Assembly (NCBI GenBank): GCA_022579005.1
Contig: MU401473.1
Span: forward strand, 124,001 to 188,000
From: Poronia punctata
Taxonomy: Eukaryota > Ascomycota > Sordariomycetes > Xylariales > Xylariaceae
DNA length: 64,000 bases
Direction of reading: 5' to 3'
Position 1 is the first letter of the stretch, and each line of letters starts with the position of its first letter. A program made the translations under genes and the position numbers. The notes beneath the pieces were generated by a model that searched no databases, was not told the DNA's origin, and worked only from the letters and a program-made list of their open reading frames with translations. Below, piece after piece: positions 8,719 through 63,584 of this stretch.

Positions 8719-9436
8719 CTTGTGAGTGATTTTGGATTTACCCTATTCATCGGTATAACAAGACAGGGTTTATACCGTCAGGCGGATATGATTATGAATT
8801 GTTTGTTGTATTGTAGACATCATTGTCATGATATCTTGTAACTCGTTGTAGGCACTTTATGTTTAACCGGGCGAGCTTAAACTGAAACTACCTACGTGTA
8901 GATGGTCCGTGCACTCGAATCTGTTCAACATCTTGTCATCTTCCAATACTGCCAAGCACCTGGAGGGGCATCAGCTACGAGTAGGTGTCTCATGTACAAC
9001 CTCAACAAGTAGGTTAATTACACCTGGATATACTTGTAAAGTTCTTATTATTTGATATTGTAACAGTCCAGGTCGAATGTTTAATATCTCCATGTTCCAA
9101 AACCTTTTAATTATACGCGTAGTTGCTGGACATTTTATTTGGGGGGCTTTCCAGAACGCTTGCCCACGTCACTTGTCAGCACCTAAGTCAGGACCTTTAC
9201 GGATATATACACGTATTATTCAGTACATCGCTTGACTGCGCATCGTGCCTTCAACAGCTACCTATCGCGCGTGTATCCGCTTCTGTTTCAGATGTACCTT
9301 TATCTACCTGTCTTCAGGAACCTGTAAGGTTACTCTATCATATCATAGGCACCTACCCTTACCTACATCTAGGTCGGTATCTTCACGTACCTGTCCTGAG
9401 GTTTTACACGTTTTGAGGGGCATGCCCCGCTATTCC
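8719..9436. other. Intergenic, left flank of the retrotransposon
   Basis: No gene recognised. Base composition is ordinary, with many TACCTA/TAGGTA words. It is not RIP-mutated, so the AT-rich character begins only inside the repeat. Confidence 0.5.
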
Positions 9437-9441
9437 GTGCA
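9437..9441. repeat. Left target-site duplication
   Basis: GTGCA immediately left of the 5' LTR is repeated immediately right of the 3' LTR (16565-16569). A 5-bp duplication is what an LTR-retrotransposon integrase leaves. Confidence 0.85.
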
Positions 9442-9636
9442 TGTTACGTATACCTATTATACCCTATAGGGTAGGTGGTACCCATAAGGAAGGCAGGGGC
9501 TACCTATAGCGTATTCCAAGTATAAGGATGTATTTTTTAAGGAATCCCTGCATAGGGACTTTTTTCTACTTTACTTTATATTATTTAAATAAATATAATA
9601 TAAAGATTCTTAGTTTTATATTAGCATTTTGCTATA
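9442..9636. repeat. 5' long terminal repeat (195 bp)
   Basis: It begins TGTTACG and ends GCTATA. Its outer (left) half keeps G and C where the 3' LTR has A and T. Its inner (right) half is AT-converted. Confidence 0.87.
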
Positions 9637-12600
9637 AATTAATAGCTAGCTTTTAATTATATTAATAGCTTGATTTTGTTAAATAGCTTAGCAATTTTGC
9701 TTATTTTTTAACTTGCAAAAGACTGCCGGCAAAAGCAACGTTATAATATAATAACTCCTTATTATAAAGATTCTATTAAATCTATTTTTATATTTTTTTT
9801 TTTAAAACTATATTGTACTATAAGGCTGTTAGTTATATTGTTTTTTTGCTATAAAATACCTTAACTTTAAGCTTATTAAGCTAGAGGACCTAGTATATGC
9901 TAAAGTAGTTGCTTTTTTAAGCATAATATATTAAAACAATAACTTAATTTATTATTTAATAAAGTAGCTTAAGTTAACTGCTTAATTTAAAACATTTTTT
10001 TAAAACTAGAAAAAGAATTACTAAACGTAACTGGATTTTTAAGACTACTAGATTTAAAAGTTAAGGTTTAAAAAAGCACTATAGCTAATAACACCTTTTT
10101 AAATTAAAAAAAAACACTTATTTTTAGCACTAGTAAAGCTTTAAAGTAAACTATTTAAATATTTTAAAGCATTTTTACTATTAGTTAGCTAAAAACTATT
10201 ATTTAAAATTAACTTTAATTAAAATATAAAATTATTTTTAAAACCTAGCTTTATAATGTTAAACTTAAATACCTTAACTTTAAAATAGTATAAGCATTGT
10301 TTTTTAACTATAAAAAACGCTGCTATATTGCTTATATTAATATTAAAAAAATATTAGCAAGTTAATAAACTAAACTTTAAAACAAAAAAAATAAAATACT
10401 TTAACTTTATACTAAAAAATAACTAAAGTATAAAAGCTATTTTTTAAAGTAAATAAATAATTTATATAAACATTTAAATATTTACAAACTAACTTTTTAA
10501 TATTAGCTAAAGCTATAGTAAATAAAAAGTTAAAACTATATAAACTACTTATTTTTAAAACATAGTATTAGCTTAGTATACTATAAAGCTAATAAAAAAA
10601 AAACAAAATCTAGTTAAGTTAAAAAACCTTTTAACAAATTTGCAAAAAACTATAAAAACAATTTAAACGTAATTATAGCAAAGCATTAGCTAGTTTTTAA
10701 AGCAGTTAATTTACTTTATAAAATATTTAACAAGGTAAAAAAATTTATTTTTTTGTTTAATAAGTAATTTAAAATAGAAAATCTTATAACTACTTTATTA
10801 AAAACTAGCTACTTATAGCATTTAAAGTATTTAATTTTTAAATATAAGCCTAACTAACTAAACCTACTATTATAACTACTTTTAATTAATTCTTTATATA
10901 AATTAATAATAAAGAAAATATTTTTAAAGCATAGCAAATTAAATATATTAGTTAAATGCCTAAACTAGCAAGCTTTATTTTTAATTTTTTTTTTTTTAAA
11001 TAATAAATAAAACTGTTAGACTAATTATTAATATTAAAATAAAAAAGGTAAAGGTAATTAAAGTAGTTAAAACACTAAATTCTTAAATAACAGATTTTTA
11101 AACAATAGATTTTTAAATAATAAATTTCTAAACAATAAATTTTACGATCTTAAGTTTAATAACTATATGCTTTAATTTAATAACGTATATAACTATAACT
11201 TTTAATATAATTTTTAAAACTAGAAAAGTAAAAAAAACAAAAATAACTATAATTAGAAAAACTATAAAAGCTAAAATTAAAAACAGCAAAATAAACGTTA
11301 AAATAATAACTAAAAATATTAAAAAAACAACTTATTAAATTAAAAAGGTTACTAAAAAAGTTAAAATTAAAAGAAGTATTGCCTACTTTTTAACTAAGAT
11401 TAACCTGCTTTTTAAAAAGCTTACTTTAGTAATAATAAGGCTTTTAAATATAATAAACAAGGTAAACTAAACTTTAATATATAGGATTTTAATAAAAATA
11501 ATTTAAATAATAATTACTTAAAGCAATAGGATCTATTAACTAGTTATAGCAACATTTTTAAGAATTTTGGACTTTTATAAAAGTATAAAAAGAATAAATT
11601 ACTAGACGTAGTTAATTTTAGCACTATAGTATTATATTTAGCTTATTATACTACCTTTTTTTTATTTAAGCAATGCTTTACTTGCTATAAAAACTTTTAC
11701 TTTAATAATATATTATATAACTATATTTAAACTAAATATTTAAAGATATACTATATACCTAGTAATATAGTATATATTATAATAGCTTATAATGTTTTTA
11801 AACCTAAGGACAAGGGTTAATATATAGATTTACAAATAAACTTAAATATAATAGTTAATTAAAAGGATTTTTAAAAACTACTATTTTTATAACCTTAAAC
11901 TAAAAAAAATCTGTTTAATATTTTATTATGTTTTAAAAAGACCTTATTATTTATTATTAAATTAAAGATTAACTTTGTACTAAATATTAAAACGGGATTT
12001 ATATACAAAACCTATACATATTTAAAAGTATATATTATACTATTTTTAAAACTAAAAAAAAAAGTAAAAGTTTGCGCAAATATAAAATATATTTAGACTA
12101 TAGCAAATAAAAATTAAGCTTTAAAGCATTATTTAAAAGCTTAATTGCATACTTAGGCTACTTTTTTAATTATTTAAAAGATTATAAATAATTAGTATAC
12201 TATAGCAAAATATATTATAGTATAGTATTTTTTTAAAAGATTTAATTAAAAGAAAATAGTTATTATAAGCTTTGTTTATAAAATAACTTTAATTAAAAGT
12301 TTGTAAGCTAATTTATTAATAAATATAAATATTTTAAATATAAAAAACATTAACATTATTTTATTTAAAAACATTGTAGTTATTTAGTTTTGCAAGATAG
12401 CAATCTTTATTACTATAATATTTTAACTATAGAAGACGTTAAAGGTTTAAATAGCAAAATTTGTTACTGTACTTAAAAGATTGCAAATAATGTTGCTAGT
12501 TATATATAATAAATTTTTAAAATAAGATTTTATTTTTAAACTAATAACTTACTTTATATTATACTACGTAGTAGTAGTAAAAAATAATACTAAATTAATA

Positions 12601-12847
12601 CTTGTTTAAAATAATATAAACTAAAATATTTATATTTATAAGCATATAAAACTAGGTTATTTGTTACCTTTTATACTAAACTGTAAAAAATATTATATTA
12701 AAAAGGTTTTTTAAAAATTAGCCTTTAGATAACTTGTAAATGCTAAATTTAAAGAGTATAAACTTAACTTTAAGATCTTAAAGGTTATAGTATAAAAAGC
12801 AAATCTAATAGTTTAATTAAAAAATAAAAAAGGTTATAAAAATTAAA

Positions 12848-12936
12848 AAGATTAAAATAATTAAAATAATTAAAATAATTAAAATAATTAAAATAATTAA
12901 AATAATTAAAATAATTAAAATAATTAAAATAATTTT
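12848..12936. repeat. 9-bp minisatellite inside the retrotransposon
   Basis: About ten head-to-tail copies of ATTAAAATA. A period of nine would encode a three-residue repeat, so this may be the RIP-bleached remnant of a low-complexity tract in the element's coding region. Confidence 0.75.
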
Positions 12937-15900
12937 AAAAAACTAATAGATTTTAAAAATCTAGCAGAAAAAAAGCTAAAGAAACTATATAACCTGCTAT
13001 TTTTGCAATATTGCATTTTAATAAAGCTATAAGATGCTATTATATTAGCTTACAATACTATTAAGCACTTATTTAATATGTTAATATATTAAAATAAAAA
13101 TTTAAAAATTATATAAGTATTTTATAACCTAGTTACAAAATTTTAAAATGTATTTTAAAATACTAAATACGCTTGTATACTTTTTAAAAAATAACTTATT
13201 TTTTACTTAGTTTTAGGATAAAAAAACAAAGTTTTTAAAAAATATAAAGTTTATTTTTTTAATGCTAAAAACTAAAAAATTATTAACTATACTTTATTAA
13301 AGCTTTAAGAAAGTAGCAAGATTTATAAAATAAACTATTTTGTTTTTTTTTTATTTTTAGTTTTTGCTATTTAGCAAACATAGCTTAATAAAAAAAAAAA
13401 GGCAAAATAGTAGTAAACGTTTAAGAATTTAATAGCTTAACTATTATAAATATATATTTAATAAAGTCTTAAAAAAATATGCTTAAAAAAATAGCTAAAA
13501 AATAGTATATATTTATTATAAATATATTAGCATTTTATTACTAATAGTTTATTTATTTATTAACTTAAACTATAATAATTATAATAACTATTAAAAAGCA
13601 GTTTACTTTTAATTGTTTAGTTATAAAATATAAAAATAGTAACGCATACGTTTAAAAATGCATAAATACTTTTTTATAATATATTTAGTTAGCAAAATGC
13701 TATTATAATAATATATATATATATATTTATATACGTTTTAAAAATATATAGTAAACCTTTAAAACTTATTTTATGTGCTGCAAGATTATAATATATTTTT
13801 TAAACTATTAAAATTATTTGTTAAATTTTTAAATACAATAGTTTTTAAATAAAAAGTTAATGCTTTTAGTTTATTTATAACTAAAAAAAAATTAAAAGCT
13901 ATTATAAAAATAATTTTTTTAATTTTATTAAAAAACTTAAAAACTTTTTTTAAGCTTATAAAATACTTTTATTATAATGTTTTAAAATATATATAAATTG
14001 TTTAACTTTTAAAGTAATAAAAAACTAACCTTTTTTAAATAAATTTTTAAAAAAGTAATATAAAATTTTAGCAAAAATAATAAGTATTTAATATATTTTT
14101 AAAACAACTTATACAACTAAAATTAAACTTATTTAAAGCTATTAAAATAGTACTAATAAAGTATATAGTATTATATTACTTTTTTAAATTTTATATTTTT
14201 TATATTAACTTTAATATATTTAAAAACAAAATTAGTATATTAGTTTATTATATAACTAATAGTATAATTTTAAAAATTTTATAAAATAGAAAAATTAATA
14301 TATACTTACCTTGTATAGTAATTAAACTAATTGCTTTTTTTTTAAAAACTTTATTTAATGCTAAAAAGAAATATTAGCTAACGGAAATAAAATTATTAAA
14401 ATATATATAGTATTTATAAAAAACAATATATTAAATTAACGTAGCTAAAAAAAAAGTATATATTTTTATAAACTATAAGGCAATTATTAAATTAACTAAG
14501 CATAAGAATTTAGTTAATTTAATAGCTTTAAGCAATAAAAACCTTTGTTTAATTTGTGCACTTAAATTTATTAGTAAATTTAATATTACTATTTTATATA
14601 AGCTAAAAAAACTATATATTATTTTAAACGCTTTATTTAAACTTAAAACTATTAATTTATATTTAAATAATAAAAAAAAAGAATTAGATTTGCTACTAAA
14701 TAATACTAAAAAGCATTAGTTACTTTTTGCTTGCTTTTAGCTAATAAAATATATATTTATTACTAAAGCCTTTTTTATATTATGTTTATTAACTATAGTA
14801 AGCTTTTAAAATAACTTTTTTTTATTTAAAAAATATGCGTTAATTTAAATAGCTTTAAAGTTTAAAACTAAGTTATAAAATAAATATTTAAAAAATAAAG
14901 CTTAAAAACCTATTTTTAATTAAATTAAAGCTAATAAATTACTAAAACTAAATTAAGCTAATATTTTTTTTGTTTTTAAAAACGGTTTTTTTTAAAAGAA
15001 ATTAAATATATATAACTAACTATATATTTTAAAAATAGCAGCACTAGAAATTCTTAAAATGCTGTATAATAAAAGCTATATAAGATCTAATAGATTTTTT
15101 TAATTACTAATTTATTTTGTTATTAATAAAAAAAAATTGCGTAAATATATTAAATTATACTTAAAATGTAATATGTTTAAAAACTAGAACTATAAACTTT
15201 ATAAATTTATATAACTAATTATAAAACTACTATGTTTGTTTTATATAATTACTTTAAATATTGCTTTAGCTTTTTTAAAATTATTTTAAAAATATAATGC
15301 TTTTATAGCACTTATTTATAAGCATTTTAAAAGTACTTAAATTATTTTAAAATAGCATAACTAAATAATAAAAAAATAAACTAATGCTATAATAAACTAA
15401 CTTTTTTTAGTTAATTAAAAAATACTAAAAGTTATGCTAAGTAATAAAAACTTTAAATTTTTATTAGATTTATAAAAATATATTTAAAAAAGGCTTAGAA
15501 CGCGTTTTTTTTATACTATAGCGTATTATTTTAAAACTAATAAACAAATAAAGCAGTTTATTTTTATAATTAAGTTAATTTTATAATACTATTTTTATAC
15601 GTTAAAAAATTTAAAAAATTAAAATAAAGCTATTTTGTATATTTAGTTTAAAATAAATAACGCTAGATTATTTATAACTAGCAAATTACTAAATAAAACA
15701 ATTTATAAATTTACTTTTAACTTTTTAATAAATATGCTTTAAAACTTTAATTAAAAGCTTTTAGCTTATATTAAAATTTATAATACTATTGCTATTGTAT
15801 TTATAATAGCAAAAAAATACTATAACTAAAAATATACTTTTTTATTTTTTAAAGTAAGTTAACAAGTTTTTTTATAGCTATATAAAAAATATAATATTTT

Positions 15901-16369
15901 AAAAGCAGCAGTTTTAAGCTAAAAACTTAGTTAGTAGTATACTAGTTTATTTAAAGTTACTAAATATATTAGCAAACTAGCTTATAAACTAAAATTTTTA
16001 TTATATTTTTGCATTTATAATATAATATTTGTTAATTATTTAAAGCTAGCACTTTTAATAAACGTATTTAGGCAATATTTCCTATATTTTAAAGATATAT
16101 ATTTTAAAAACTATTTTAAAAATTTTTTTTAAAAAAATTTAAAAACTTATTACTACTTAGTAAAATATATTAAATTAAGTTTTAAATACTAAAAATAAAT
16201 AATTAGCAAAGATTTAAGCAAAAAAAAAAATATGTTAATTATAAAATTTAAAGCACAGTAATAAAAAATATAAAAAACAATTTAAAAAATTATATTAATA
16301 GTTAAATTATATATTACTTTTTAAAATATATAAATAATAAAAGCATTGTTATTTTTAAGGGCAGCAACC

Positions 16370-38335: not shown

Positions 38336-39921
38336 ATGACTTTCGTTAGAAGCTTATTACTTGGATTTTTTATTCTGGTGAGTACAAGCTTTTTCAATTT
38401 TCTCCCAACATTTCACAAAACGCAAGCAAGCTCCCGTGGAAGTAATCATTGGACGGGTCTAACCGCATGTTCCGTTATCGCTTCCCCCCCCCCCCCCTCC
38501 CCTGCTTCCCCGGAACGGGAAACAGTCGCACGTGGTCAGGAAGGAAAGGAAGAACGTCGTGGTTGTTAATCGTAGTTGGTTTGGATGAATTACAGTACAT
38601 TCTACTTATCGGCTATATCCGACAAACGTGTTGGCGCGACCCGACATCCCCGTTTTTCCAATCGCGCAAGGCGCATACCTCGACGTACTCGACCCATCGC
38701 ATCCAGCAGGCCGTAGAATTCGCCGACCATGCCACGGTAGAGACCCTGTCGGCCTACCAGGCCAACAGGACGGACCCTCCCGAGCTATGCGTCGGTATCC
38801 CGTCGGTCAAGAGAGCCGGGGTCTCGTACCTGAAACTGACGCTCGGCTCTCTCCAACAGGGATTAAGCCCCGAGGAGAGGATGCGTCTCCGCTTCGTCGT
38901 CCTTCTCGCGCACGTGAATCAGACCGAACATCCGGACTTCAGGGAACCCTGGCTGGCCGGCATGGCGGACGAGCTCCCGTCTTACCAGGATGACGAGGAG
39001 AGATTGAAGCTGGCCAAGAAGATGGAGGCGAAGCGGACGCACGGCACCAAGTCCAAGTTCGACTATGCGATCGTCATGGAGGAGTGCAGGAAGTCCAGGG
39101 CGCCTTATATCCTAATGCTGGAAGATGACGTCGTCTTCCTCGACGGGTGGCTACATAGGACCATGGAAGCTCTGGCTACCGCGACCGCCTTATCCTGGGA
39201 AGCGGGATATACCACCTGTAAAACACACCCACCCCTTCCGTCCCTGTCTTTTACCTGAAATACCCGAATGGAAAATGCTAACTACTCACACCCCGAAAAA
39301 AAAACAGTCCTCTACCTCCGTCTCTTCTACTACGAAGGTCTTCTAGGCTGGAACTCGGAATCATGGCCCACCTACCTCGGCACCTCCCTCCTAATCACCT
39401 CCCTCGTCCTAAGCAGTCTCCATCTAACCCGACACTACGTACCCAAGACCCGGCCCTACCTCACCCGCTGGGTCATCGTCCTCGTCGGCGGGGTCTTCAT
39501 GCCCCTCCTCATAGCCCTATACTTCGCCGCGGGGCGCAACTGCGTGCTACCCCAACGCACGGGCGTCCACCGCATGGACAAATACGCCTGTTGCGGCCAG
39601 GGCCTCGTCTACCCGCGCACGACCGTGTCCGAGAATCTCCTGCCGTATTTCCTCAAACACAGATGGGCCGAGACGCCCACGGACAGTCTGATCGAGCAAT
39701 ATGCCGACGAGACGGGCGCCTTGCGCTGGGCCCTGACGCCCGTCGTCATGCAACATGTTGGTGGACAGAGCAGTCATAGCGGGTCGAGGGGGGGCAGATA
39801 TGGGCCCAAGAGGATTTGGAATTTCGGGTTCGAGGCGAATGAGGCGACTAGGTTGGCGCTTGAACATTCCGAGGTGAATAGTAGGACGATAGATGATTTG
39901 GATACGAGGATTTTGACGTGA
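38336..39921 (+). CDS. PGAP4-like Golgi glycosyltransferase (GPI-anchor side-chain type)
   Basis: Predicted 425 residues in three exons: 38336-38377, 38596-39217 and 39308-39921, with introns of 218 and 90 nt. Splicing of exon 1 onto exon 2 yields one clean N-terminal signal anchor (about 5-22). The GT-A half follows, with a DxD-type motif in YILMLEDDVVFLDGW (about 195-210). Just after it, two further hydrophobic segments interrupt the catalytic domain (LLITSLVLSSLHL and WVIVLVGGVFMPLLIALYF, about 242-295). The domain then resumes with TPVVMQHVGGQSS. A transmembrane hairpin inside the GT-A fold is the unusual architecture known from PGAP4, which adds GalNAc to GPI anchors. The sugar and acceptor in fungi are inference. 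Confidence 0.75.
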
Positions 39922-43292: not shown

Positions 43293-44902
43293 ATGCATTG
43301 GGGCACAGCATTACCTCTAGGCCTCTTGGTCTCGGGCACCTGGGCGAGTGGTCTAGCCTTTTCCAACAGCACCCTAGCCAAATGTCTTCGCGACGCCGGC
43401 ACGATCTACTCAACCCCGGACTTGAAGAACTGGACGACTTTCAACTCGCCCTTCAATGAGCGCCTCGTGTTCGAACCCGCCGCCATTGCCGTCCCCGAGA
43501 CAGCCGAACAGGCCCAGAAGGCGCTGCTGTGCGGTCGCCAGGAGAACCTCAAGGTGACTCCCAAGTCCGGAGGTCACTCGTACGCTTCACTCGGCTTTGG
43601 AGGTGAGGATGGCCATCTCGTCATCCAGCTCGACCGCATGAACGCCGTTAGCGTCGACGAAGAGACCAATATTGCCACTGTCGAGGCTGGAACTAGGCTG
43701 GGTCATCTTGCGCTGGAGCTGTATGATCAAGGAAAGCGCGCTATTTCTCACGGCACATGCCCTGGGTAAGAATGCGCCCATTTCCCCTTTACTCGCGCAC
43801 CAGCAAGTTTGAAACCCAGAGCTAACGAGTCCACAGTGTCGGTGTATCTGGCCATGTCCTGCACGGTGGCTTCGGCATGAACTCGCACACTCACGGTCTA
43901 GCCCTGGATTGGGTCGTCGGTATAACCGTCCTCCTTGCGGATGGCACCATCGTCGAGACCTCTGCTACAGAAGAGCCAGACTTGTTCTGGGCTATGCTGG
44001 GCGCTGGCTCCAACTTTGGCATTGCCCTGTCCTACAAGTTCAAGACGTATGAGGCGCCCGAAGAAGTGACCGTTTACTCCGCTAGACTGCCCTGGAACAA
44101 GACCACGGCTGCCGGTGGCCTCGAGATTCTGGAAGACTGGGCTAGGAATACCATGCCTGAGAGCCTCAATATGCGACTGGCTGGTGGCAACCGACAGGCT
44201 AACGTGGAGGGTGCTTTTATCGGCGACCACAAGGGTCTCGTCGAGGCGTTAGAGCCCCTTTTGAATGCCACTGGAGGCACCCTCACCTCCAATCAGACTT
44301 TGACTTGGGTCAAGGCTCTGGAGCACTATGCTTACACCGATCTTGAACAGACTTATCCCTACGACGTGGTAAGTTCAACTCATGTATCCTCATGCCCAGG
44401 ACATCCCTGCTAACAAAAGGTTGTAAAATAGCACGAGACGTTCTACTCCAAGAGTCTTGCACTCACTGGGTTGAGCGGACAAGCGGCCGAAGACTTCGCC
44501 GACTACTGGTTCAACAACGCCACCAAGGTAAGCCGCATCTGGTGGTTCCAGCTCGACCTTCAGGGTGGAAAGAACTCGTTCACGGAGAATGAGGATACGT
44601 CCGCGACGTCGTACGCCCATCGCGATAAGCTGTATCTCTTGCAACTGTACGACCGCGTCTTCTTTGGCGACTACCCCGAAGACGGGTTTGACTTCCTTGA
44701 CGACTGGGTGACGACCACTACAAGCTCACTCTCGGCCGACGACTGGGGCATGTACATCAACTATGCCGATGCTCGCCTCGACCGCGATACAGCCCAACAG
44801 GTCTACTGGGGCAATAGCCTTGCCAAGCTCCAGACTCTCAAGGCCCAGTACGATCCCGAGGAGCTCTTCTACTACCCCATCGGCATCGCGCCGGCCGCTT
44901 GA
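43293..44902 (+). CDS. Secreted FAD-linked oxidase, AA7 type (oligosaccharide/berberine-bridge family)
   Basis: Predicted 491 residues in three exons: 43293-43765, 43837-44368 and 44432-44902, with introns of 71 and 63 nt. A signal peptide occupies about residues 1-20. The FAD domain carries both covalent attachment residues: the histidine in PKSGGHSYASLGF (about 100) and the cysteine in HGTCPGVGVSGHVLHGGFG (about 156), the bicovalent arrangement typical of glucooligosaccharide oxidases. The BBE-type C-terminus ends with the flavin-contacting YYP motif. Such enzymes oxidise C1 of sugars or sugar oligomers extracellularly and release hydrogen peroxide. The exact substrate, which could also be a secondary metabolite, cannot be told. 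Several N-x-S/T sites support secretion. Confidence 0.88.
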
Positions 44903-53469: not shown

Positions 53470-56400
53470 CTACACTGAATTTTCTTGTTCCCGGTTCTGT
53501 ATCCAACCCCACATGCGCATCACGTGTTCACGATTTAATGGCTCGAGGTTGCGAATAGACCTTGACACTTGCCGAGTACGTGTTGTTTGGAATGTCGTCA
53601 AGCTTGTCAACAATCGATCAGATTCGTACCGTTGCTCCCACAAACTGGTAAGTGCTTGCCAAGGATGACAGGATGTCGGTTCGGCCGCTATGATCCTCTC
53701 AAGGTGTCCCATCCATGTCTGTACAGAAACCACCTCAGGGCCAAGACTCCCTTGCCCTTCGGAGATCCACTGGAGCATCTGGCGCCACGAGGGTGACATG
53801 TGATGGTTAAGGACGTGGTATACCGGCACTTCATCAGGCTTGAGACCGGGGAAGCTGCTTTTATTGCTTGACAAGGCGATCTCGAGGATCGACTCTGCCG
53901 CTATATCCACTGGGAGCCAATTCAGGTGCTCCCCTGGGAGGTCGGGCAGACAACCGGTTAACTTTGCTGTCGAGAGCATCTGCGGATACGCTTCGTTGAT
54001 GTTCCAGATACCGAACTTGTTACCGCAAAGCTGACCAACCCGAATGATGGATACGCGGGGCTTTTGGTAGGTTGATGTTGGGCATCTGCTGACGGCTTCC
54101 CGATGTGCTGCTGCGCAGACTTGCTCGGCTACCCACTTCGACCTAGAGTAACCCAGCGGAGAAGCATACTGCGGATTTGGGATGACCTTCTCCGGTACTA
54201 CCCCTAACGGCGTATTGCTCACCGCGGCAGTGGAGCTCACGAAGACGACCTCGGTCTGGTTTGGGGAGAAAATGTCTATCAGATTCTTTACGCCTTTAAT
54301 CTGTGGTTCGAAAGATGCGAGACTGAGAGCGAAATTCACGGGCCAGGCTGCGTGGATGATGTGGCTAGCTGTCTCGGTAATTTGTGACAAGTCTTCAGCT
54401 GACAACCCCAGAGTGTCAGAAGACAGGTCACTGGGCAGACAGACGACCCTATCATGGAATAGAGGATTATGTTGGAGTTCCTTTCCCTTCCTCAGATGTC
54501 GTTCAACCAACGAACTTGCTATTCGTTGCTTTACTTGCTCGCGTGTATCTCCACGTGCGAGACAATATACCATGGATATCTCGGGATTGTCCATCAACTG
54601 TGTCAATATATGGGCACCAAGTGCTCCAGTCGCGCCTGTCAAGACCACTACCATTATACGTCTGTTCCATAACCTGTCGGGACCGGAACAGAGACAGGGG
54701 CGGTATTTCTCTGCGAGAAGTCGCATTGAACTCGTTGGGTCTGTACTTATCTGCTCTCTCCTTTCTAGAACCCCTCCATTCCGTATTGTCTTCAAATTCC
54801 TGGCCAGAGAAGTAATGGTGCCAGCATCGTATATTATATTCCTTGGCAGCTTGACCTCTGGCGGCAACAAGCTGGTCTTCAGTGCTGCTGATATGTGCAT
54901 ACAGGCGATAGAATCCACGCCCTGGGCATAAACATCTTGATCTGGGTCGATCGCACGACCGAAGACATCGTCGAATACGTCCGTGATATACGCCACTATC
55001 TGGTCATCCGGTACATGTTGTCCCCCTCGAGTCACCTGGGATCGCGCATAGGCTTCTTCGATTGAATCGGAAAACATCTTCTCAGCTTGATAGCGGAGAA
55101 CAGTGCCTTTGCTACTCTTCGGCAAGGGCTGTTCCCCATCCTTTACCCTGTGTATGAACAACATCGACCGTTGCAACCTGGTGTATGCTGGTGCCGCTGA
55201 ATTCAATCTCCGTATTACCGGCCATACTATTTCAAGCACCTCGCCATCAGAGAGATCTCGGGGCTCAATGAAGAGTAACGCCCCAGGAAATTCCCTGCCC
55301 TCGCCAAAGATAAGCACGCCCCTCAAGACAGTACACGAAGCTCCAAGCTCATCTTCAACCGGCGAAGGATCGAACTTCTTCCCGTTGGAAAGAGTAATAA
55401 GCGCGTCCGCCCTCCCACGATACCTCCAACCGTTCGGGATCAAGGGATGTGACTCGAACAAATCGGCCGTAGCATAGGATCCGTCTGGTCGATTTGTTTT
55501 GAGTCTAAGAGGCCAGTCTCTCTTCACGACTAGTTCCGAAACATCCTTGCCTCTTGGTTCAAAGTCCAATAAGTCGGGAGTGCAAGATATTCTCAGATAT
55601 TGCCACTCCTTGTCATGGGCGTAATCTCGGTGGGAAGACATTAGAAATCCGCACTCGGCACTACCCATGCGCGAAAGTAATTTTACGCCAGAGTCCACAA
55701 GATGGTCGCCAATGATTGGCGTTAGGGGTGCTCCACCGACACCGATGAGATCCATGGACTTGAGAAGCTCGACGCCATCGTCTTCTTCGGCTAGGATTTG
55801 CAGGATATAGGGGACGGAGGAGAAGTACGTGATAGGTATTTCTCTGCTGTTCCCACGAGCGAAGTGGACTGCGTCTTGGATGTTCCGAGAAGTTACCGGC
55901 ATCACGTCTTCGGGAAAGAACCAGATGAGGGCTCCGCTCGTCCAGGCGCGGAGGGCGTCGGCAATGCCGCCGTGGTATAGAGGGGTTGTTGTGAATGTCC
56001 CTTTGGGATTGGTGGCTGTGAATACGGGGAGACAGCCGACGGCGCCCCATTGGGTTTGTCTGATGGGTTTGGGTAATCCGGAGGTAGTGCCCGAGGTACT
56101 GTCGAATCAAGTCAGTATCGCCAAATGACCAAGTACCAAAGTGGGCACGTAGAACTGGCAAAGTGATATGAGTCGGGAATAACATACTGCTGGAAAAACA
56201 CAGCGTCCGAGCTAGTCTTCTTCTCACCCGTCTTTCTTTCTGCGGTCGAGCATTTGCATGACGCATCATAATAATCCGGTATATCCAGTACCCTAACACC
56301 ACCTCGAATCTGGGATATCTGCTCCTTGTGACCTCGATCAACCAGTATCATATCGATACCAGTCTCTTTACAGAGATGTTCAATAGCTTTATTATGCAAT

Positions 56401-56992
56401 TGTGGACTATGTAGGTATATTTTTCACAGAGTTAGCTACCTCTTACTCATCCAAGTCGATTCAGATAGCGATGAAAGGAAGAAGGAAAGAGGAAGAAGGA
56501 AAAAGAAAAACTTACGCAAAAAAGAAGGCAACATGTCCCAAATACGTAAGCCCCAGCCAAGAGAGCACGAGATCAAGACTACTTGAACAAAACAACCCCA
56601 CCACCACCGCACTTTTCCCTCCTTCCCCTCTCTCTTCTTTTTCTGGTCTACTGCTGTTATAAATATGCCCCCGAAGTTTCGACGCAGCTCCTCGGGCATA
56701 TTCATCTAATTCTCCAAATGTGACTAAACAAGGTTCTATCACCAGGTTTTTTTTTTTTCCCCCTACAGTTAATAACCTGGATTTATGTTTTTATGACGAG
56801 GAGGGACTCACTTTTCGCACCCCCACTACTAGCGAACCCTAAAGCCAGGACATCGGGACGAGTGATTGCTCGTGATTGTATAAGGTCGAGAACTGTTTCG
56901 AAAGGATTTTGTCGCTGCTGTGTTTTGAGAGTGGGATTTGTTGTTAAGGCTTCGCCTAGGGTGCATGTGAAGTAGTTTGGTGATGGGGACAT
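53470..56992 (-). CDS. NRPS-like adenylate-forming reductase (A-T-R), predicted mycosporine-modifying enzyme
   Basis: Predicted 1082 residues in four exons: 56992-56812, 56735-56516, 56406-56188 and 56098-53470, with introns of 76-109 nt. The adenylation domain (about 1-560) has the A3 loop QHTSGTTSGLPKP (formed across an intron), YRGRADALITLSNGKKFDP (A8/A10, with the acyl-AMP lysine) and no condensation domain. The carrier domain (about 610-690) carries the phosphopantetheine serine in YAQGVDSIACMH. The thioester-reductase domain (about 720-1082) has the NADPH loop VVLTGATGALGAHIL and the SDR triad: VSSTAAVSN, then GYSRSKWVAE. A terminal reductase releases the acyl thioester as aldehyde or alcohol. 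Next to cyclase, methyltransferase and ATP-grasp genes, I infer it loads a mycosporine-amino acid (or its amino acid) and reduces it to the amino alcohol. A lone lysine-pathway aminoadipate reductase is unlikely, as that enzyme is larger. Confidence 0.9.
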
Positions 56993-57615
56993 GGTTATTG
57001 GTTATTTGTTTGTGTTTATGTGTGAGAATGGGAGTGAGAGGGAAAGTGAGATGTCGATAGTGTAGAGGGGGGAGGTGGTATCTTGATTTACTATTTATCA
57101 TTACTTGTTCACTAGGTATTTTGGGTATGATATCTTATGCATGTGAAGCCGGGGGTGAGGTCAAGTGAGGTGTACAGGAGGTCATGGGATACTTAATATA
57201 CACTGTCATTTCTGTTCGGAAGTGAACGTGTCGGATATGGACCTGCAAACTTATCTAGGTGCCTATCCTACCTGACCATCGTCATCTCTGCTTTTTATAT
57301 TGCAGAGCGGGGTAGGTCGGGTGAAGATTAAGCATGCTGGGCAACATAAGATGCTTAAATCAACATGAGGGTCTTTCCTGGACAACTTCTTCGATACACA
57401 TATGTAAGATACATCATACGTGCTCCCATCGGTGTAGCTAACCAATCTACTGACGAACATACATCCGATTTGGTAGATGGATGTGGCCTACCTCTAGGTA
57501 TAAACGACTTGTACAGCATATACCATACGACATGTAGATATCACACAACAATATCCTTTACTCTCTTTCCCTCCAACGACGTACCTAGGTAATTACCTAC
57601 TCCCCTATCTATCAA
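56993..57615. promoter_or_regulatory. Upstream region of the A-T-R gene
   Basis: 623 bp between the A-T-R start and the stop of the ATP-grasp gene, both on the minus strand. TACCTAGGTA-type words lie at 57250-57275 and 57578-57600. No gene seen. Confidence 0.4.
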
Positions 57616-59100
57616 CTAACAACTAAACATCTTGGTAGTGCTAACATTAACCCGACTCCACCTTCTCCCCCCCCACCAAGCAGACAGGATGGTAAGCGGC
57701 CAATACACATGGTACAAAACCAACGCAGGCAAAGGATCCCAAGACTCGAAAGTTCCTTCCTTCCACGTAAACACATGTTGGAAGAACGTCTTTACGGATT
57801 CGAAATCCATCGAGAGTGTAAAGAGAGGGTGGATGATGAGTGTGATTAGATCGTGGCCGATCCAATATCGCGGTTTGGTGGTGAGGGGAGAGGGGGATAG
57901 CAACTCTTCTTCTTCTTTGCCTTCTTGTTTCCCCCCCTTTTTTGTGTTTGTGTTTGTGTCAAGAACAGAAAGATACCCCTCCACAACCTCTTTGCCGAAG
58001 AGCACAACGGCAGTATGTGCGCGCGGATTACACTCGATGGCGTAAACCCCATCCTCCTCATCCCTTTTCGCCATGAAATCGAAACTCAAATGTCCCGTCA
58101 ACATCTCCTTTTCCCCATTCCCCCATCTTTCCAGAAATCCCTCTGTAAACTTCCTCATCGCTCTCCATCTCGCATCCGTAGGTTGCAAGGGAACGTAATG
58201 CATGAGCAACTCTTGACTCGGACAAGCGACAAAGCACTTGATTTCCCCCCGGACGACGAGCGAATGTGTGCAGTATTCCTCCTTTCCGCCGATATATTCC
58301 TGCAAGATCCACGGACTTGAAGATTTCGAAGACTTTTGGATGGGCAGGGAGCAGATGTAGGCCACGGTTTGGGAAGGCGTGGGTAACGGGAGAAGAGTCA
58401 TGTTTGCTCTGTATATGTCGTTGACGTCTGTTGGTTTGAGGATATATCGCCTCTCTTTTCCCCGTTCTTCCTTTTTCCGTATGGTTAATGATGATAGAAT
58501 TTCCAACACCTCCCCCGCCGAACAAACCCGATGACTCCTCGGAACAGATAATCCCCTCTCAGCACAAACCCTCGTAAATTCGTCCTTGCAATGCAAAGCC
58601 GCCGTAGTCTTCTCATCGAATTGCACGCATTTACACCTCGTCTGAGATTCGATTTCTTTTTTTGCCAGGGCATCTTCAATCGCGCTCGTTACGCCCGAAC
58701 AAGATACCCATAAATCGACGGATTCCTTTTCGACAATCCCGACGAGAAGGGAGATGTAATTCTTTCGTCGTCCGGGTAGGGTGTAAAATCGCGATATACT
58801 CTTTGAAAAACGGCCGGGACAGGGGATTATCCCGTCTTCGAAGTCGGCGCCTATTACGCGGTGGCCGGAGAGGTGGAATGCCCGGGCGAGGGTTAGGCCT
58901 TTGGACATTCCTATTCCTGTCACTAGGATGGTTTTCTTGTCGATGGCACTTTGTGGCTGGGGTTTGTTGGAAGGGTATGGGTTTATGAGTTGGTTTACGC
59001 AAGTGAGGAGGAGGATTGTGAGGGATAGGGGGAGGATGAGGAGGGAGAGGAGGATTAGGGCGAAGCACCGGGTTGTGTCGTGGAAGGTTGAACCTGTCAT
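57616..59100 (-). CDS. Membrane-anchored ATP-grasp ligase, MysC-like
   Basis: Single exon of 494 residues. A strong hydrophobic helix at about 13-37 should anchor it in a membrane. The pre-ATP-grasp domain starts with KTILVTGIGMSKGLTLARAF and GHRVIGADFE. The ATP-binding half includes RYILKPTDVNDI and PWILQEYIGGKEEYCTHS. The metal-binding end is HLSFDFMAKRD and YAIECNPRAHTAVV. A 90-residue tail with WDPLPALVLYHVYWP and WSRVN follows, which I recall as a feature of mycosporine-type (MysC) ligases. MysC couples an amino acid to 4-deoxygadusol through phosphate activation; here that would give a mycosporine-amino acid. A Lys/Glu-rich insert (about 395-415) is low complexity. Assignment rests on fold plus the neighbouring cyclase; the amino acid is unknown. 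Confidence 0.83.
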   Translation of the reverse strand: MTGSTFHDTTRCFALILLSLLILPLSLTILLLTCVNQLINPYPSNKPQPQSAIDKKTILVTGIGMSKGLTLARAFHLSGHRVIGADFEDGIIPCPGRFSKSISRFYTLPGRRKNYISLLVGIVEKESVDLWVSCSGVTSAIEDALAKKEIESQTRCKCVQFDEKTTAALHCKDEFTRVCAERGLSVPRSHRVCSAGEVLEILSSLTIRKKEERGKERRYILKPTDVNDIYRANMTLLPLPTPSQTVAYICSLPIQKSSKSSSPWILQEYIGGKEEYCTHSLVVRGEIKCFVACPSQELLMHYVPLQPTDARWRAMRKFTEGFLERWGNGEKEMLTGHLSFDFMAKRDEEDGVYAIECNPRAHTAVVLFGKEVVEGYLSVLDTNTNTKKGGKQEGKEEEELLSPSPLTTKPRYWIGHDLITLIIHPLFTLSMDFESVKTFFQHVFTWKEGTFESWDPLPALVLYHVYWPLTILSAWWGGRRWSRVNVSTTKMFSC

Positions 59101-59964
59101 TTCTCACTCGGTGATATCAAGGTATCAATGTTTGGAAGGTTGGGTATACCCGTATGTGTGGGTGACGATGGGTATAGTAAAAGTGAGAATGCCTTCACAA
59201 TTCTATTGTAGGGACAAAAAATGGGGTTATACCAGGCCTGGTATAGGTCGAGTAAAAATGCACGATAGACAAACAGCAATACTTTCTTCGAAAGTCGCTG
59301 GCTTCTACCGTACTAGAAAGAAAATACTGGAATGAGAATGAGAGAATTCCACCGCTCATGGTATCAACAAATGTCTTACCGGTAACCTCCCAGTCGCGAT
59401 GTGTTTCGCTTCGTTCCCGGAAGCATAAAGACGTCACCATTCTCGCCCGTCATCGTGTACGAAAGCATTTCTAGGTGTTTAGAATGCCATAACAATTTAC
59501 GATAGATGCATGCAATATACCACAGTAAGTGCAAAATGGGATACATCACAATATGTTCTCTTCGCGTATGTGGTGTATCCGTAGTCGTACATTCATGCAT
59601 GTACAGTGTATGACGCACGGAGCGACTGTTCAAGGGGGACTCTTGTCATTTTTGGCTGCGGGGGCTTGTACATTGCAGTCTCAGACGATAAGAAAAGGGG
59701 GGGAGGGGTGAAGTGTAATTGGATGTACTCGTAGAGAAAACAGGCGATAGATGGCAAAGTTCAAATTATCAGTGAGAAAGTAAGTAGACACCTACTTAGA
59801 TGTTTAGACAATACTCACAGGCCTACGAGTACGATATGGAAATACGGCATTCATTCGTCTAATTATTCTTTGCCCTCTCTGTGTGTATAGGATAGTATAG
59901 TCTGGTCTACGTGTACTGGCCTGAGCCGATAATATACCCCCTTTTTCTTTTCTTTTTCCATCAA
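59101..59964. promoter_or_regulatory. Intergenic between cyclase and ATP-grasp genes
   Basis: 864 bp upstream of the ATP-grasp gene and downstream of the cyclase gene. No gene seen; it should contain the ATP-grasp promoter. A G-run near 59696-59708 is present. Confidence 0.4.
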
Positions 59965-61592
59965 TCACGCCTGAGCCTTGATCTCCTCGGAAACATTCTT
60001 TACCCTCCCCTTATTATTATTATTATTATTACCATTAGTAAGCGCGGCGGCCATACTCCGTTCCGCGGCCCTACTACTAACGGCCAAATCCTCAGCCGCC
60101 AGATCCGTATATCCCGTATCACTACTATCGACATACGCCTCGATACCGGCACCCCCACGCGCATATGTCGCCGCGAGGGCTTTATGCGCGTGTAGCGCTT
60201 CGCGAAGTTCTTGTTCGGTGGCGTCGTTGACGAAAGTGCATGTTCCGAGGGGGCTCGGCACGGCGAGACGGAGGAGACCGTCGCGGGTTTTCAGGATCGC
60301 TGCCGTTCCCCTTTCGAGAACGGATTCGTCGAATTGTGCGTGGTCGATGGATAGGCCGGCGCGAGAGAATAGGTTGAGAAGACGTTCATGTTCGGTGTCG
60401 GCGAGGAGGCCGCGACGGTTGGCGAGGGTGGCGGAGTAGGCCATGTCGATGGAGATGGCGTGGCCGTGACGGAGGGGGGTTTCGGGGATTAGTTCGTGAA
60501 GGGGGGACCAACTACATAAGGTATTTTTTACGCGTTAAATATTATCCATCTAGTACGTAGTTCCCGCAATGTAGAGAAGCTTACGTGTGGCCGTATGCGA
60601 TGACGCGGTCTAGACCGATTTCATGCAGATTGGGAGACTCGAGCTTCAGCATCTCGAAGATACCTTCACGGTTGATCTGTCCTCATAAGTCAGCAACATA
60701 CAATTTACACCAAGAGATAGGCTATGCAAACAAAACGTACGATATCAGCCGCCTTCCGAACCTCCTCCGCCGCTCCATCGTTCCGACCAAACTTGGTCTC
60801 GATCAACTGCTCACAGAACTTATCGAGCAAATCAAAAACTTGCAGATGAGCACAAGACGAGATCTTGACCAACTCTGCAAAGCCATTTCTGACCTGCGAA
60901 GTCGGCAGAGTACGCAAGAAGCCGAAATCGAGAAACGTGTGGAGAGGAGCGTGGTAGGCGCCCAGACGGTTCTTGTATCGGCCGTAGTTGACTGCTACCT
61001 TGATGCTGACGCTGGCGTCGATGAGGCCGATGACGGTTGTCGGAACTCGGATGAAGTTGGTGTTGCGACGGTAAGCAGCACAAGCGAATCTGAAAGGTTG
61101 TTGAGTTTTTTCGCATGTTCAAAGTATGTTTTTGGCATCAAGATTAAACATACCCTGCGACGTCGGTGACCAGACCTCCTCCGACCACAAGCACGGGTTC
61201 CTGCATTTACACGGTAAACAAAGCATATCCATCAACATTCTCTCTCTCAACATTAAACATACCTTTCGGATAATGCCAAAATCAGTCATAGAATCGCAAA
61301 TCTCCAAAAAGGTCTCGATAGTCTTGGCCTTTTCCCCAATAGAAGTCTGATGAACCTTGAGCTCGAGATCGAAACGCTTAAAGTACGTCTCCATCTTCTT
61401 GCCGTAGAGAGCGTAGACATTCTTATCCGTCACGGCGAGGACCCGGCCCCATTTCCTGTAACAGTCGGCCAGGTTCGGGTTCGCCGTGTCAAAGACTCCG
61501 TCTACAAAGGAGAAGTCGTATTCAATCTTCTCGTAACCCTCGACGTGGAACCCGGCCGGGGTCTCTTGGACGGTTGCTTTGAGATCAGACAT
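59965..61592 (-). CDS. Sugar-phosphate cyclase, demethyl-4-deoxygadusol synthase (MysA/DDGS) type
   Basis: Predicted 454 residues in five exons: 61592-61263, 61200-61154, 61089-60741, 60676-60585 and 60511-59965, with introns of 62-73 nt. The fold is that of dehydroquinate synthase. The NAD-binding loop [18 protein letters not shown] is followed by [40 protein letters not shown] and [14 protein letters not shown], where the metal-binding glutamate lies. Metal-ligand histidines follow in AYGHTWSPLHE and RHGHAISID. The [12 protein letters not shown] and NRLGAYHAP segments fit the sedoheptulose-7-phosphate cyclases (EEVS/DDGS) rather than true dehydroquinate synthase, which in fungi is part of the pentafunctional AROM protein. 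The adjacent methyltransferase and ATP-grasp genes favour DDGS. The C-terminus has an Asn run from a TTA microsatellite (60018-60040). Confidence 0.88.
60018..60040. repeat. TTA trinucleotide microsatellite in cyclase coding sequence
   Basis: Tandem TTA on the plus strand reads as an asparagine run on the coding strand, in the non-catalytic C-terminal tail of the cyclase. Confidence 0.8.
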
Positions 61593-62580
61593 TTTTTATA
61601 TATATTTTGGTTGACGAAAAGTACGAGTCTAAGATGTTGAAATCTAGATGATAGGAAAAAGAGACAACAGACAGTATAACAAGATTGTATGAATGACTAG
61701 AAAGTCAGGAATGATAGACCAACAACAAAGTTTGAATTAAATCTATTTTTACTTATTCCCTTCCATTTCCCATCCCCTGACCAGGAAAACAACAATCTCC
61801 CGTCATGCCGTCATTATCTCTCCATCTCACCCAATTACCCCGTATCCGTCCCATTTCGTCCTAGGACGGGATGTCCAAGTCAAAACTGTCTAAGAAGCAT
61901 CGGAGCCGTGTCTTGGGAGGGAAAAGATATGTCAGTTTATCATTCCATTATACGACGCACTCCCGACTCTAGACCGTCCCGGATCCGGTCAAAGGTGCAT
62001 TGCATTGGCATGTCCAACAACTGGTATCCCGTGCGAATGCCTCTGGTTATAGGACGATAGGCTACCGAGATTGGACTGCATGAGATTCGGAAACCATCTA
62101 TGCGAGATGTAGATCTAGGTAGATAATGGTAGATAACCGTTGGGAAAACCAGATACCAGACGACGAGCATTATTATACAAATAGCATGTACGTAAATGAA
62201 TTACATACCCGGCATCCAATCCCATACATATATCATAAGGGATTTCCCGGCCTCGGCGCTCGGAATGCAGGAGCGTGTCGGAAAAGCACAAATTTGAGGC
62301 TTGCCGCTTTGCATCTGCATTTGCATTTGCATTGCATACATGAGCGGGGAAAAGGAAAAGAAAAAGTCATGACAACATTGAACGTTTTAAGCGAAACGAT
62401 ACACGAAACAACTTTTCACCGGTTATCGAGAAGAAGGTGTTTAAACTAGGTAGGTATCAGGAGACCATCCCCCCCCCCCCTTTTTTCCCCCCCATTATTT
62501 CGTCCATTTTTGTCTTCTTTCGAACAAACAAAAGCAAAACAAAACGAAACAAACGACAATACCTAGTGTTAGGCTAGGTA
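61593..62580. promoter_or_regulatory. Shared divergent promoter of the cyclase and O-methyltransferase genes
   Basis: 988 bp between two divergent start codons, the natural place for coordinate control of the first two pathway steps. A (ATTTGC)n-like stretch lies at 62308-62334 and a C10-T6-C6 pyrimidine block at 62469-62493, near the O-methyltransferase start. TAGGTA words lie at 62104-62125, 62445-62455 and 62560-62580. No light- or stress-response element can be assigned by eye. Confidence 0.5.
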
Positions 62581-63584
62581 ATGGCTTCTTCACAAGAAGA
62601 CACGTTCGAGGGAGTGGCGTATCAGCCACAAGGAGATGTATACGTGAGTCTCTTCTTTTCCCAACACAACAACAAACCTCCTTTACATAATTACATACAT
62701 ACCTTGTACCTATTAGATACTGATCGATCGAAAAAGTGGAACGACGGCCGCGAACTCGAGCTCCTACACTTCATCCAGTCCCATCCCTCCCTCCCGGAAA
62801 TAAGAAACAACCCGGGCAAAGTCCTCTCCCTCATCGACGAATACGGCCGGACGAGGAGATACCTCATGAACATTGGCGAATACAAATCCGTCACCGTCAC
62901 CGACCTGATTAAAGAGAAAAAACCAAGAGTCGTGGTCGAGTTGGGCGGATATGTAGGCTATTCCGCCATTGCGTTTGCTGCTGCCTTGTCAGAGGGGGGT
63001 GTGTATTATAGTCTGGAGAGTAATCCCGAGTTTGGCCATGTGATTAATAAGCTCGTGGAGATTGCCGGGTTGAGTGATGTGGTCAAGGTTGTTGTTGGAC
63101 CGAGTTCGGATTCGTTGAAAAAGTTACATGCGGACGGGACTTTGACCAAGATTGATTTGTTGTTTTTGGATCATTATAAGCCGTCGTATACCGACGATTT
63201 GAAGATTTGTGAGGAGTTGGGGTTGGTGGGTGTTGGCAGTGTTCTGGCTGCTGATAATGGTAAGATGATGTTTGAGATGTGATACCTACGGACGGCATTT
63301 TCGACTTACTTACTAACTTGTCATGACAGTTATCAAGCCCGGAAACCCGCCATACCTCGAGTACGTGAGGAGTTCTGTCATGAACAAGGTTCGGAACTTG
63401 GCCGATACTGGACTCAGAGGAAACCCTTACCTCCAGTATGAGAGCAAGTTGGTCAAGGGGTGGGAGCCGACTGGTGTTCCGGTAGGTTTAAACTACTTTC
63501 TTGTCCTTTTTGTTGTACATGGTCACTAATAAGTAGTAGGATGGGATTGAGATTACAGAGTGTGTGGGTGTGATGGAAACATGA
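62581..63584 (+). CDS. COMT-type O-methyltransferase, predicted demethyl-4-deoxygadusol methylation
   Basis: Predicted 260 residues in four exons: 62581-62643, 62737-63259, 63330-63481 and 63540-63584. The first intron (93 nt, GTGAGT to AAAAAG) is an exact multiple of three without a stop, so reading through it is possible. Removing it joins QGDVY to WNDGRELELLHFI, the normal start of fungal COMT-like enzymes. The SAM loop is VVVELGGYVGYSAI. Catechol-methyltransferase metal ligands are seen in LLFLDHYKPSYTDDLKI (Asp, Lys) and VLAADNVIKPGNPPYL (Asp-Asn). The family methylates one oxygen of a vicinal diol or enediol in a magnesium-dependent way, and demethyl-4-deoxygadusol offers such an enediol. 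Position, divergent from the cyclase gene, makes it the MysB counterpart. A general catechol methyltransferase that happens to lie here cannot be excluded. Confidence 0.83.

What the first reader, a model, noticed from the sequence alone, without database searches (positions are those of the whole stretch)
53470..63584. Four-gene fungal mycosporine-type biosynthetic cluster
Sequence shows, side by side, an A-T-R NRPS-like enzyme, an ATP-grasp ligase, an EEVS/DDGS-type cyclase and a class I O-methyltransferase, three on one strand and the fourth divergent. Established knowledge: cyanobacterial mycosporine clusters (MysA, MysB, MysC plus MysE or MysD) use a DDGS, an O-methyltransferase, an ATP-grasp ligase and an NRPS-like or D-Ala ligase-like enzyme. 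Inference: this is the fungal equivalent, making UV-absorbing mycosporines.
Basis: partly seen in the sequence, partly recalled or inferred. Interest (0 to 1): 0.92.

Follow-up and report, generated by a model that had tools for sequence, protein, structure and literature searches.

The report
Fungal sunscreen (mycosporine) gene cluster
A dung-dwelling fungus carries a four-gene set that very probably makes a UV-absorbing mycosporine, and its fourth enzyme may be the reductase that gives fungal mycosporines their amino-alcohol side chain.

Summary
In detail: four genes at 53470-63584, three on the minus strand (A-T-R reductase, ATP-grasp, cyclase) and a divergent O-methyltransferase. The genome is Poronia punctata (Xylariaceae). 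The cyclase is a desmethyl-4-deoxygadusol synthase (DDGS), not EEVS or DHQS: 500 bits to 5tpr (DDGS), 247 to 4p53 (EEVS), at most 119 to DHQS, with DDGS fingerprint residues. The ATP-grasp belongs with bacterial MysC. These functions match the proven Phaffia mycosporine cluster.

Two parts differ from cyanobacteria. The methyltransferase lies nearest catechol OMTs, unlike the one MysB tested. The fourth enzyme is not MysE but an adenylate-forming reductase whose A4 motif, PLYHGG, lacks the amino-acid-anchoring Asp. Cyclase, ATP-grasp and A-T-R hits share a contig in 28 named genomes. Best reading: the A-T-R reduces the carboxylate of a ring-bound amino acid to the amino alcohol of fungal mycosporines. 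That step is inference. NRPS-like 'myc' clusters in Hypoxylaceae are in print, so this is a variant of a known kind. Against universality: Phaffia reportedly makes mycosporine-glutaminol without an A-T-R, and Hypocreales A-T-R relatives show no named cyclase in my capped lists.

The parts
53470..56992 (-). A-T-R adenylate-forming reductase (NRPS-like), exons 56992-56812, 56735-56516, 56406-56188, 56098-53470; 1082 aa (deposited model P0241: 1091 aa, differs at the intron 1 acceptor)
   Evidence: Pfam PF00501, PF23562, PF00550, PF07993; gene model; deposited model P0241, 99% over 100%
57616..59100 (-). MysC-type ATP-grasp ligase with an N-terminal hydrophobic helix, single exon, 494 aa
   Evidence: Fungal-family HMM hits an ORF in 75 of 80 bacterial DDGS loci, best 282 bits; ATP-grasp fold, E 4e-12 to PurK at TM 0.50 by query length; invariant ECNPR motif in 23 of 23 aligned
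59965..61592 (-). DDGS (desmethyl-4-deoxygadusol synthase), exons 61592-61263, 61200-61154, 61089-60741, 60676-60585, 60511-59965; 454 aa
   Evidence: 500 bits to 5tpr vs 247 (4p53) vs at most 119 (DHQS); fingerprint E255/A269/T348
61593..62580 (.). 988-bp divergent intergenic region between DDGS and OMT, candidate shared promoter (inference)
   Evidence: Gene models
62581..63584 (+). COMT-type SAM-dependent O-methyltransferase, exons 62581-62643, 62737-63259, 63330-63481, 63540-63584; 260 aa
   Evidence: PF01596; 141.6 bits to 5zy5 catechol O-methyltransferase

Best explanation
A mycosporine pathway in Poronia punctata. (1) DDGS turns sedoheptulose 7-phosphate into desmethyl-4-deoxygadusol (family assignment shown here; reaction from established knowledge). 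(2) The COMT-type methyltransferase gives 4-deoxygadusol (inferred from position and the Phaffia precedent). (3) The MysC-type ATP-grasp joins an amino acid to the ring, giving an oxo-mycosporine that absorbs near 310 nm (inferred from MysC homology and the Phaffia precedent; which amino acid is unknown). (4) The A-T-R activates the carboxylate of that ring-bound amino acid, holds it as a thioester on its carrier domain and releases it reductively, yielding a mycosporine amino alcohol such as mycosporine-glutaminol or -serinol (inferred). Likelihoods: mycosporine cluster about 0.92; A-T-R part of the same pathway about 0.85; A-T-R makes the amino alcohol about 0.55; acting after rather than before the ATP-grasp about 0.4.
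For: DDGS: scores; E/A/T fingerprint in 120 of 120 listed fungal cyclases and 80 of 80 bacterial DDGS ORFs (sets chosen by similarity), ValA L/D/H. ATP-grasp: family HMM hit to the bacterial ORFs at best E 9e-85, 31-33% identity over 475-491 columns. Some locus tags are near-adjacent: Apiospora marii PG985_009726/9727/9729, Pestalotiopsis fici 12759/12761/12763, Xylaria curta NUW58_g783/g784, Pyricularia pennisetigena 09129/09130. A-T-R residues Y866 and K870 (reductase), S612 (carrier), K543 and K546 (A10 region) are invariant in 22 of 22 aligned sequences (roles recalled). Each letter of A4 motif PLYHGG is kept in at least 90% of 92 sequences. Fungal mycosporines include glutaminol forms in the text and a glutamicol form in a reference title (passages of PMC3083659); serinol forms are recalled.
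Against: Phaffia has no A-T-R in its cluster, and three Phaffia genes in S. cerevisiae reportedly gave mycosporine-glutaminol, judged by HPLC retention and comigration (PMC10057719 section 2.3). That paper has the ATP-grasp ligating glutaminol. A-T-R relatives are common in Hypocreales (45 of 92 tips by my labels), yet no Hypocreales cyclase or ATP-grasp is named in the top-120 lists. Diaporthales and lichen cyclases are listed but no A-T-R is named from them in the top 120. In Xylariaceae sp. FL1272 the A-T-R and cyclase hits lie on different contigs; in Biscogniauxia mediterranea the cyclase and ATP-grasp hits do; 8 of 48 A-T-R rows showed no shared contig. No test here separates two- from four-electron reduction. 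The MAFFT alignment did not align the A4 motifs of MysE and A-T-R directly.
Confidence: 0.6

Rival explanations
1. The A-T-R reduces a free amino acid (for example Gln to glutaminol) first, and the ATP-grasp then joins the amino alcohol to 4-deoxygadusol, as the Phaffia paper draws it.
For: The Phaffia paper states that the ATP-grasp incorporates glutaminol (passages and section 2.3 of PMC10057719).
Against: The A4 motif of the A-T-R is PLYHGG, not FDxS. All 12 NRPS-like ORFs found beside bacterial DDGS have FDxS, 10 of them FDVSV. That the Asp of FDxS anchors the free alpha-amino group is recalled knowledge.
Confidence: 0.3
2. The cluster makes an ordinary mycosporine-amino acid with DDGS, OMT and ATP-grasp only, and the A-T-R reduces an unrelated acid or serves another pathway.
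For: Phaffia works with three genes. A-T-R relatives occur in Hypocreales with no cyclase named in my lists. The genome has 31 PF07993 reductase-domain matches, this one included.
Against: A-T-R shares the contig with the cyclase or ATP-grasp in 40 of 48 transcribed rows; the 35 of these 40 that passed the length filter fall in one clade of 42 tips (support 0.998). Own-genome paralogues are at most 37% identical.
Confidence: 0.15
3. The cluster makes a two-amino-acid MAA of the shinorine type, as cyanobacteria do, the NRPS-like enzyme adding the second amino acid.
For: Same first and third steps.
Against: The enzyme has a reductase domain and no TE hit in Pfam, and no detectable homology to ORFs of the bacterial loci (0 phmmer hits at E<=1e-3). 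Published statement that the fungal cluster lacks peptide-binding enzymes and gives only aminocyclohexenones (PMC10057719 passage).
Confidence: 0.04
4. The cyclase is an EEVS or DHQS and the cluster makes another cyclitol.
For: [quoted passage not shown]
Against: Scores and fingerprint residues. The NCBIfam aroB score of 185 is below its cut-off of 305. One relative is itself named demethyl-4-deoxygadusol synthase (Penicillium diatomitis).
Confidence: 0.02

Closest known systems
Phaffia rhodozyma MYC cluster (DDGS, OMT, ATPG; mycosporine-glutaminol), PMC10057719
   Same: The same three core functions; fungal; gene functions shown there by deletion and expression in yeast (abstract, passages, section 2.3).
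   Different: The Phaffia cluster is described with three genes and no A-T-R; basidiomycete. I did not compare the Phaffia sequences themselves.
Cyanobacterial MysA-MysB-MysC-MysE/MysD cluster (shinorine type)
   Same: DDGS at 53-58% identity in the 80 listed loci and MysC-type ATP-grasp.
   Different: Methyltransferase nearest other members of the O-methyltransferase family. Fourth enzyme is A-T-R with PLYHGG rather than an NRPS-like ORF with FDxS.
'myc' NRPS-like gene clusters of Hypoxylaceae (PMC8403587)
   Same: Same order (Xylariales). That paper reports homologues of MAA clusters in most Hypoxylaceae genomes, products unidentified (passages). My list has Hypoxylon, Daldinia and Annulohypoxylon with all three genes on one contig.
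   Different: In the passages I saw, no role is given to the reductase domain in the myc clusters and no reaction is proposed.
Fungal adenylate-forming reductases and carboxylic acid reductases (A-T-R)
   Same: Domain order and reductase homology (8aep 171 bits, CAR 5mso 80 bits by profile).
   Different: Substrate not known; linked to DDGS.

Membership tests
Fungal mycosporine cluster (Phaffia type) | DDGS-type sugar phosphate cyclase | tested here: met
Fungal mycosporine cluster (Phaffia type) | SAM-dependent O-methyltransferase next to DDGS | tested here: met
Fungal mycosporine cluster (Phaffia type) | MysC-type ATP-grasp ligase | tested here: met
Fungal mycosporine cluster (Phaffia type) | Makes a 310-nm mycosporine that is lost on deletion | not testable with these tools
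   Needs culture and LC-MS
Cyanobacterial MysA-B-C-E cluster | NRPS-like MysE with A-T-TE and an amino-acid-type A domain | tested here: not met
   A-T-R with PLYHGG; no phmmer homology to ORFs of 80 bacterial loci
Cyanobacterial MysA-B-C-E cluster | MysB-like methyltransferase | tested here: inconclusive
   Weak homology (best 52 bits) but different nearest relatives. Fungal OMT: COMT 5zy5 141.6, caffeoyl-CoA OMT 5kva 37.3 bits. One MysB (L074): 3r3h 126.7, 5kva 105.8; soluble COMT 4p7f 42.8, but 2avd, also named catechol OMT, 101.9 bits
Adenylate-forming reductase (A-T-R) | Adenylation, carrier and NAD(P)-binding reductase domains with conserved catalytic residues | tested here: met
EEVS | Leu/Asp/His fingerprint (ValA 267/281/360, numbering recalled) | tested here: not met
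   Glu/Ala/Thr at all three; eLife 2015 (PMC4426668 passage) says two active-site fingerprint sites separate EEVS from DDGS
DHQS / AROM | Best match to DHQS | tested here: not met
   At most 119 bits vs 500 for 5tpr (PDB itself labels 5tpr '3-dehydroquinate synthase', its DDGS identity is recalled); the other PF01761 match of the genome is at C160

The most novel reading that the evidence does not exclude
The A-T-R is a 'mycosporine reductase'. It takes the finished mycosporine-amino acid, loads the whole chromophore onto its carrier through the amino acid's carboxylate and releases it as the amino alcohol. This would explain why fungal mycosporines carry glutaminol, glutamicol or serinol, and would reverse the drawn order in which free glutaminol is ligated.
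Probability: 0.35. Interest if true: 0.72.

Novelty: new variant of a known kind. Interest (0 to 1): 0.52.

Why it matters
Fungal mycosporines often carry amino alcohols (recalled; glutaminol forms), yet in the listings and passages that I saw from my searches no enzyme is named for making the alcohol. A reductase found on the same contig as DDGS and MysC-type ligase in 28 named genomes gives a gene to delete. It would also offer an enzymatic handle for making reduced mycosporines. The different nearest relatives of the methyltransferase suggest that the pathway kept DDGS and MysC but swapped or separately recruited its methyltransferase; that rests on one fungal and one bacterial sequence.

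Tried and rejected
Rejected: EEVS or DHQS identity; MysE orthology. I looked for further cluster genes among long ORFs only (window 34-53 kb, and two 9.9-kb stretches that begin 1 kb before the window's end) and scanned ten of them with Pfam. Beyond the OMT come an ORF with no Pfam hit, a calcineurin-like phosphatase and an E1-E2 ATPase piece; before the A-T-R come about 4 kb with no ORF of 150 aa or more and then a DENN-domain gene. A glycosyltransferase-like ORF exists at 38449-39258 (MGAT4_cons, 46.1 bits, below its cut-off of 51.5), about 14 kb away and beyond the DENN gene; I did not count it in, but a far glycosylation gene is not excluded. Small or intron-rich genes could have been missed.

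Led nowhere or weak: PDB sequence search for the ATP-grasp (no hit). The MAFFT alignment of A4 regions placed a 12-column gap between MysE FDVSV and PLYHGG, so I rest the Asp-to-His reading on the flanking TP...SGA letters, on a weak alignment to oxalyl-CoA synthetase 6qjz (PLFH, 20.3 bits) and on recalled knowledge of the superfamily. In that script 5 of 12 chosen A-T-R sequences were dropped because my motif pattern missed them, and 2 of 12 NRPS-like ORFs (FDLSL) were left out. The cyclase tree has only two outgroups and weak support (DDGS clade 0.356, fungal clade 0.763), so I do not lean on it. The A-T-R structure model is poor (pTM 0.47) and was not searched. The FastTree A-T-R tree used 92 of 120 hits (length 1000-1200 aa), with Hypocreales labels set by me from genus names (one Fusarium, P0320, was left among the unlabelled) and midpoint rooting. 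Paper searches were too broad to settle whether Fusarium NRPS11 sits beside a DDGS; one A-T-R hit (P0298) is named nrps11, whose product is listed as not known in F. fujikuroi (PMC3694855 passage).
Full report
The window lies in a 45.05-Mb, 573-contig assembly, at C20:124001-188000. The cyclase matches a deposited Poronia punctata protein at 100% identity over 100% of its length, on a contig of 304,650 bases, the length of C20. P. punctata is in the Xylariaceae.

Gene models. I enumerated GT-AG introns and fixed the OMT by reading its first intron by hand. The cyclase model (454 aa) agrees with the deposited P0001. The A-T-R model (1082 aa) differs from deposited P0241 (1091 aa) at the first intron's acceptor; this is unresolved. 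The ATP-grasp reads as one 494-aa frame. The deposited P0121 (456 aa) omits three stretches, at least two of which the 23-sequence family consensus keeps, so I prefer the single exon. The OMT has four exons, 260 aa.

Cyclase. Against PDB chains it scores 499.7 bits to 5tpr, 246.9 to 4p53 (the EEVS ValA by recall) and at most 118.8 to dehydroquinate synthases. PDB names 5tpr '3-dehydroquinate synthase'; that it is the Anabaena variabilis DDGS is recalled. Residues E255, A269 and T348 align with E, A and T of 5tpr (positions 254, 268, 347 by recalled numbering), where ValA has L, D and H. The three are constant in 120 of 120 listed fungal cyclases and 80 of 80 bacterial DDGS ORFs, sets chosen by similarity. 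A passage of PMC4426668 says that two active-site fingerprint positions separate the groups, without naming the letters in the text I saw.

ATP-grasp. Pfam and PDB sequence searches find nothing. An HMM from 120 fungal relatives hits an ORF in 75 of 80 bacterial DDGS loci at E<1e-10 (best 282 bits); three of the five misses lie on contigs under 6 kb. Direct identity of the eight best is 31-33%. The model (pLDDT 79.9, pTM 0.84) matches PurK, GAR synthetase and L-amino acid ligases at E 4e-12 to about 1e-10, with TM-scores of 0.4-0.5 by query length.

Methyltransferase. Best chains are catechol O-methyltransferases (141.6 bits to 5zy5), with caffeoyl-CoA OMT 5kva at 37.3 bits. A MysB from Nostoc punctiforme NIES-2108 (L074) ranks them the other way: 3r3h 126.7, 3cbg 126.1 and 5kva 105.8 bits, soluble COMT 4p7f 42.8 bits. 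One chain against a clean split: 2avd, also named catechol O-methyltransferase, scores 101.9 bits with MysB; I recall it as the CCoAOMT-like COMTD1, which I did not test. The fungal OMT still finds ORFs of the bacterial loci weakly (best 52 bits; 78 of 80 loci have a hit at E<1e-3, though not every hit is the MysB). So both belong to one broad family with different nearest relatives. Only one fungal and one MysB sequence were compared this way.

A-T-R. Pfam gives AMP-binding, AMP-binding_C_3, PP-binding and NAD_binding_4. Putative catalytic residues are invariant in 22 of 22 aligned relatives. The A4 motif is PLYHGG, each letter kept in at least 90% of 92 sequences. Of 12 NRPS-like ORFs found by motif in the bacterial loci, 12 have FDxS (10 FDVSV), 11 fit a loose thioesterase pattern and none fits my reductase pattern. 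The loss of the Asp suggests that the substrate is not a free alpha-amino acid, which fits a ring-bound amino acid whose nitrogen is tied up. This rests partly on recalled superfamily knowledge and on an alignment that MAFFT did not give directly.

Conservation. From the top-120 lists I transcribed 70 cyclase, 48 A-T-R and 68 ATP-grasp rows. Several locus tags are near-adjacent. A contig of several megabases alone would not prove a cluster, but 15 of the 28 are under 700 kb. Against this: 8 of 48 A-T-R rows showed no partner; FL1272 has A-T-R and cyclase, and Biscogniauxia mediterranea cyclase and ATP-grasp, on different contigs. The A-T-R rows that I left out are mostly Hypocreales, which form a separate clade (50 tips including five that I had not labelled Hypocreales, support 0.794, against 42 tips, 0.998) and for which no cyclase is named in my lists. 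Those lists show only the best 120 of 3284 cyclases and 1507 ATP-grasps, so absence there is not absence in the genome.

Literature. PMC10057719 (abstract, passages, section 2.3): a Phaffia three-gene cluster tested by deletion and yeast expression, ATP-grasp said to incorporate glutaminol, product identified by HPLC comigration in the section I read. PMC8403587 (passages): NRPS-like 'myc' clusters in Hypoxylaceae with unidentified products, and A-T-R enzymes in PKS clusters called likely carboxylic acid reductases. PMC3083659 (passages): fungal mycosporines with glutaminol; glutamicol in a reference title. PMC5103461 (passages): discovery of the Phaffia cluster. PMC12230676 (one passage): antiSMASH 8 updated its detection rule for mycosporines, so such clusters are already a recognised class. 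PMC3360786 (passages): speculation that a mycosporine-like NRPS product acts in F. fujikuroi sporulation. Passages of PMC11433233, PMC11195213 and PMC12468165 did not bear on the question. The search 'mycosporine' with 'adenylate-forming reductase' found no paper. Many subscription papers are not in that library.

Verdict. The cluster is real and almost certainly a mycosporine cluster. It is a known kind, with a fourth enzyme and a methyltransferase that depart from the cyanobacterial plan. The role of the A-T-R is the open and testable part.

Noticed in passing
window 8001-16000: Very AT-rich stretch (GC 0.29, then 0.14) in a window otherwise at 0.45-0.53, probably a repeat-induced or AT-isochore block.
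   Followed up: no
window 57616-59100: The deposited ATP-grasp model of P. punctata (P0121, 456 aa) leaves out three stretches, at least two of which the family consensus keeps; it is probably mis-spliced.
   Followed up: partly
window 62581-63584: The cluster's methyltransferase is nearest to catechol OMTs while the one cyanobacterial MysB tested is not, which suggests replacement or separate recruitment of this step.
   Followed up: partly
window 38449-39258: ORF with a below-cut-off glycosyltransferase-like match (MGAT4_cons, 46.1 bits against 51.5), some 14 kb from the cluster.
   Followed up: no
window 43293-44413: Two adjacent ORFs that look like exons of a secreted FAD-binding oxidase; PF01565 hit on the first only.
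   Followed up: no
L047, L071, L072, L080, L085: Loci titled Rhodococcoides, Williamsia (two), Nocardioides and Mycobacterium also carry OMT-like and MysC-like ORFs beside DDGS.
   Followed up: no
G000, 31 places: The genome has 31 PF07993 reductase-domain matches including the cluster's own; those matched by the cluster's A-T-R elsewhere are at most 37% identical.
   Followed up: no
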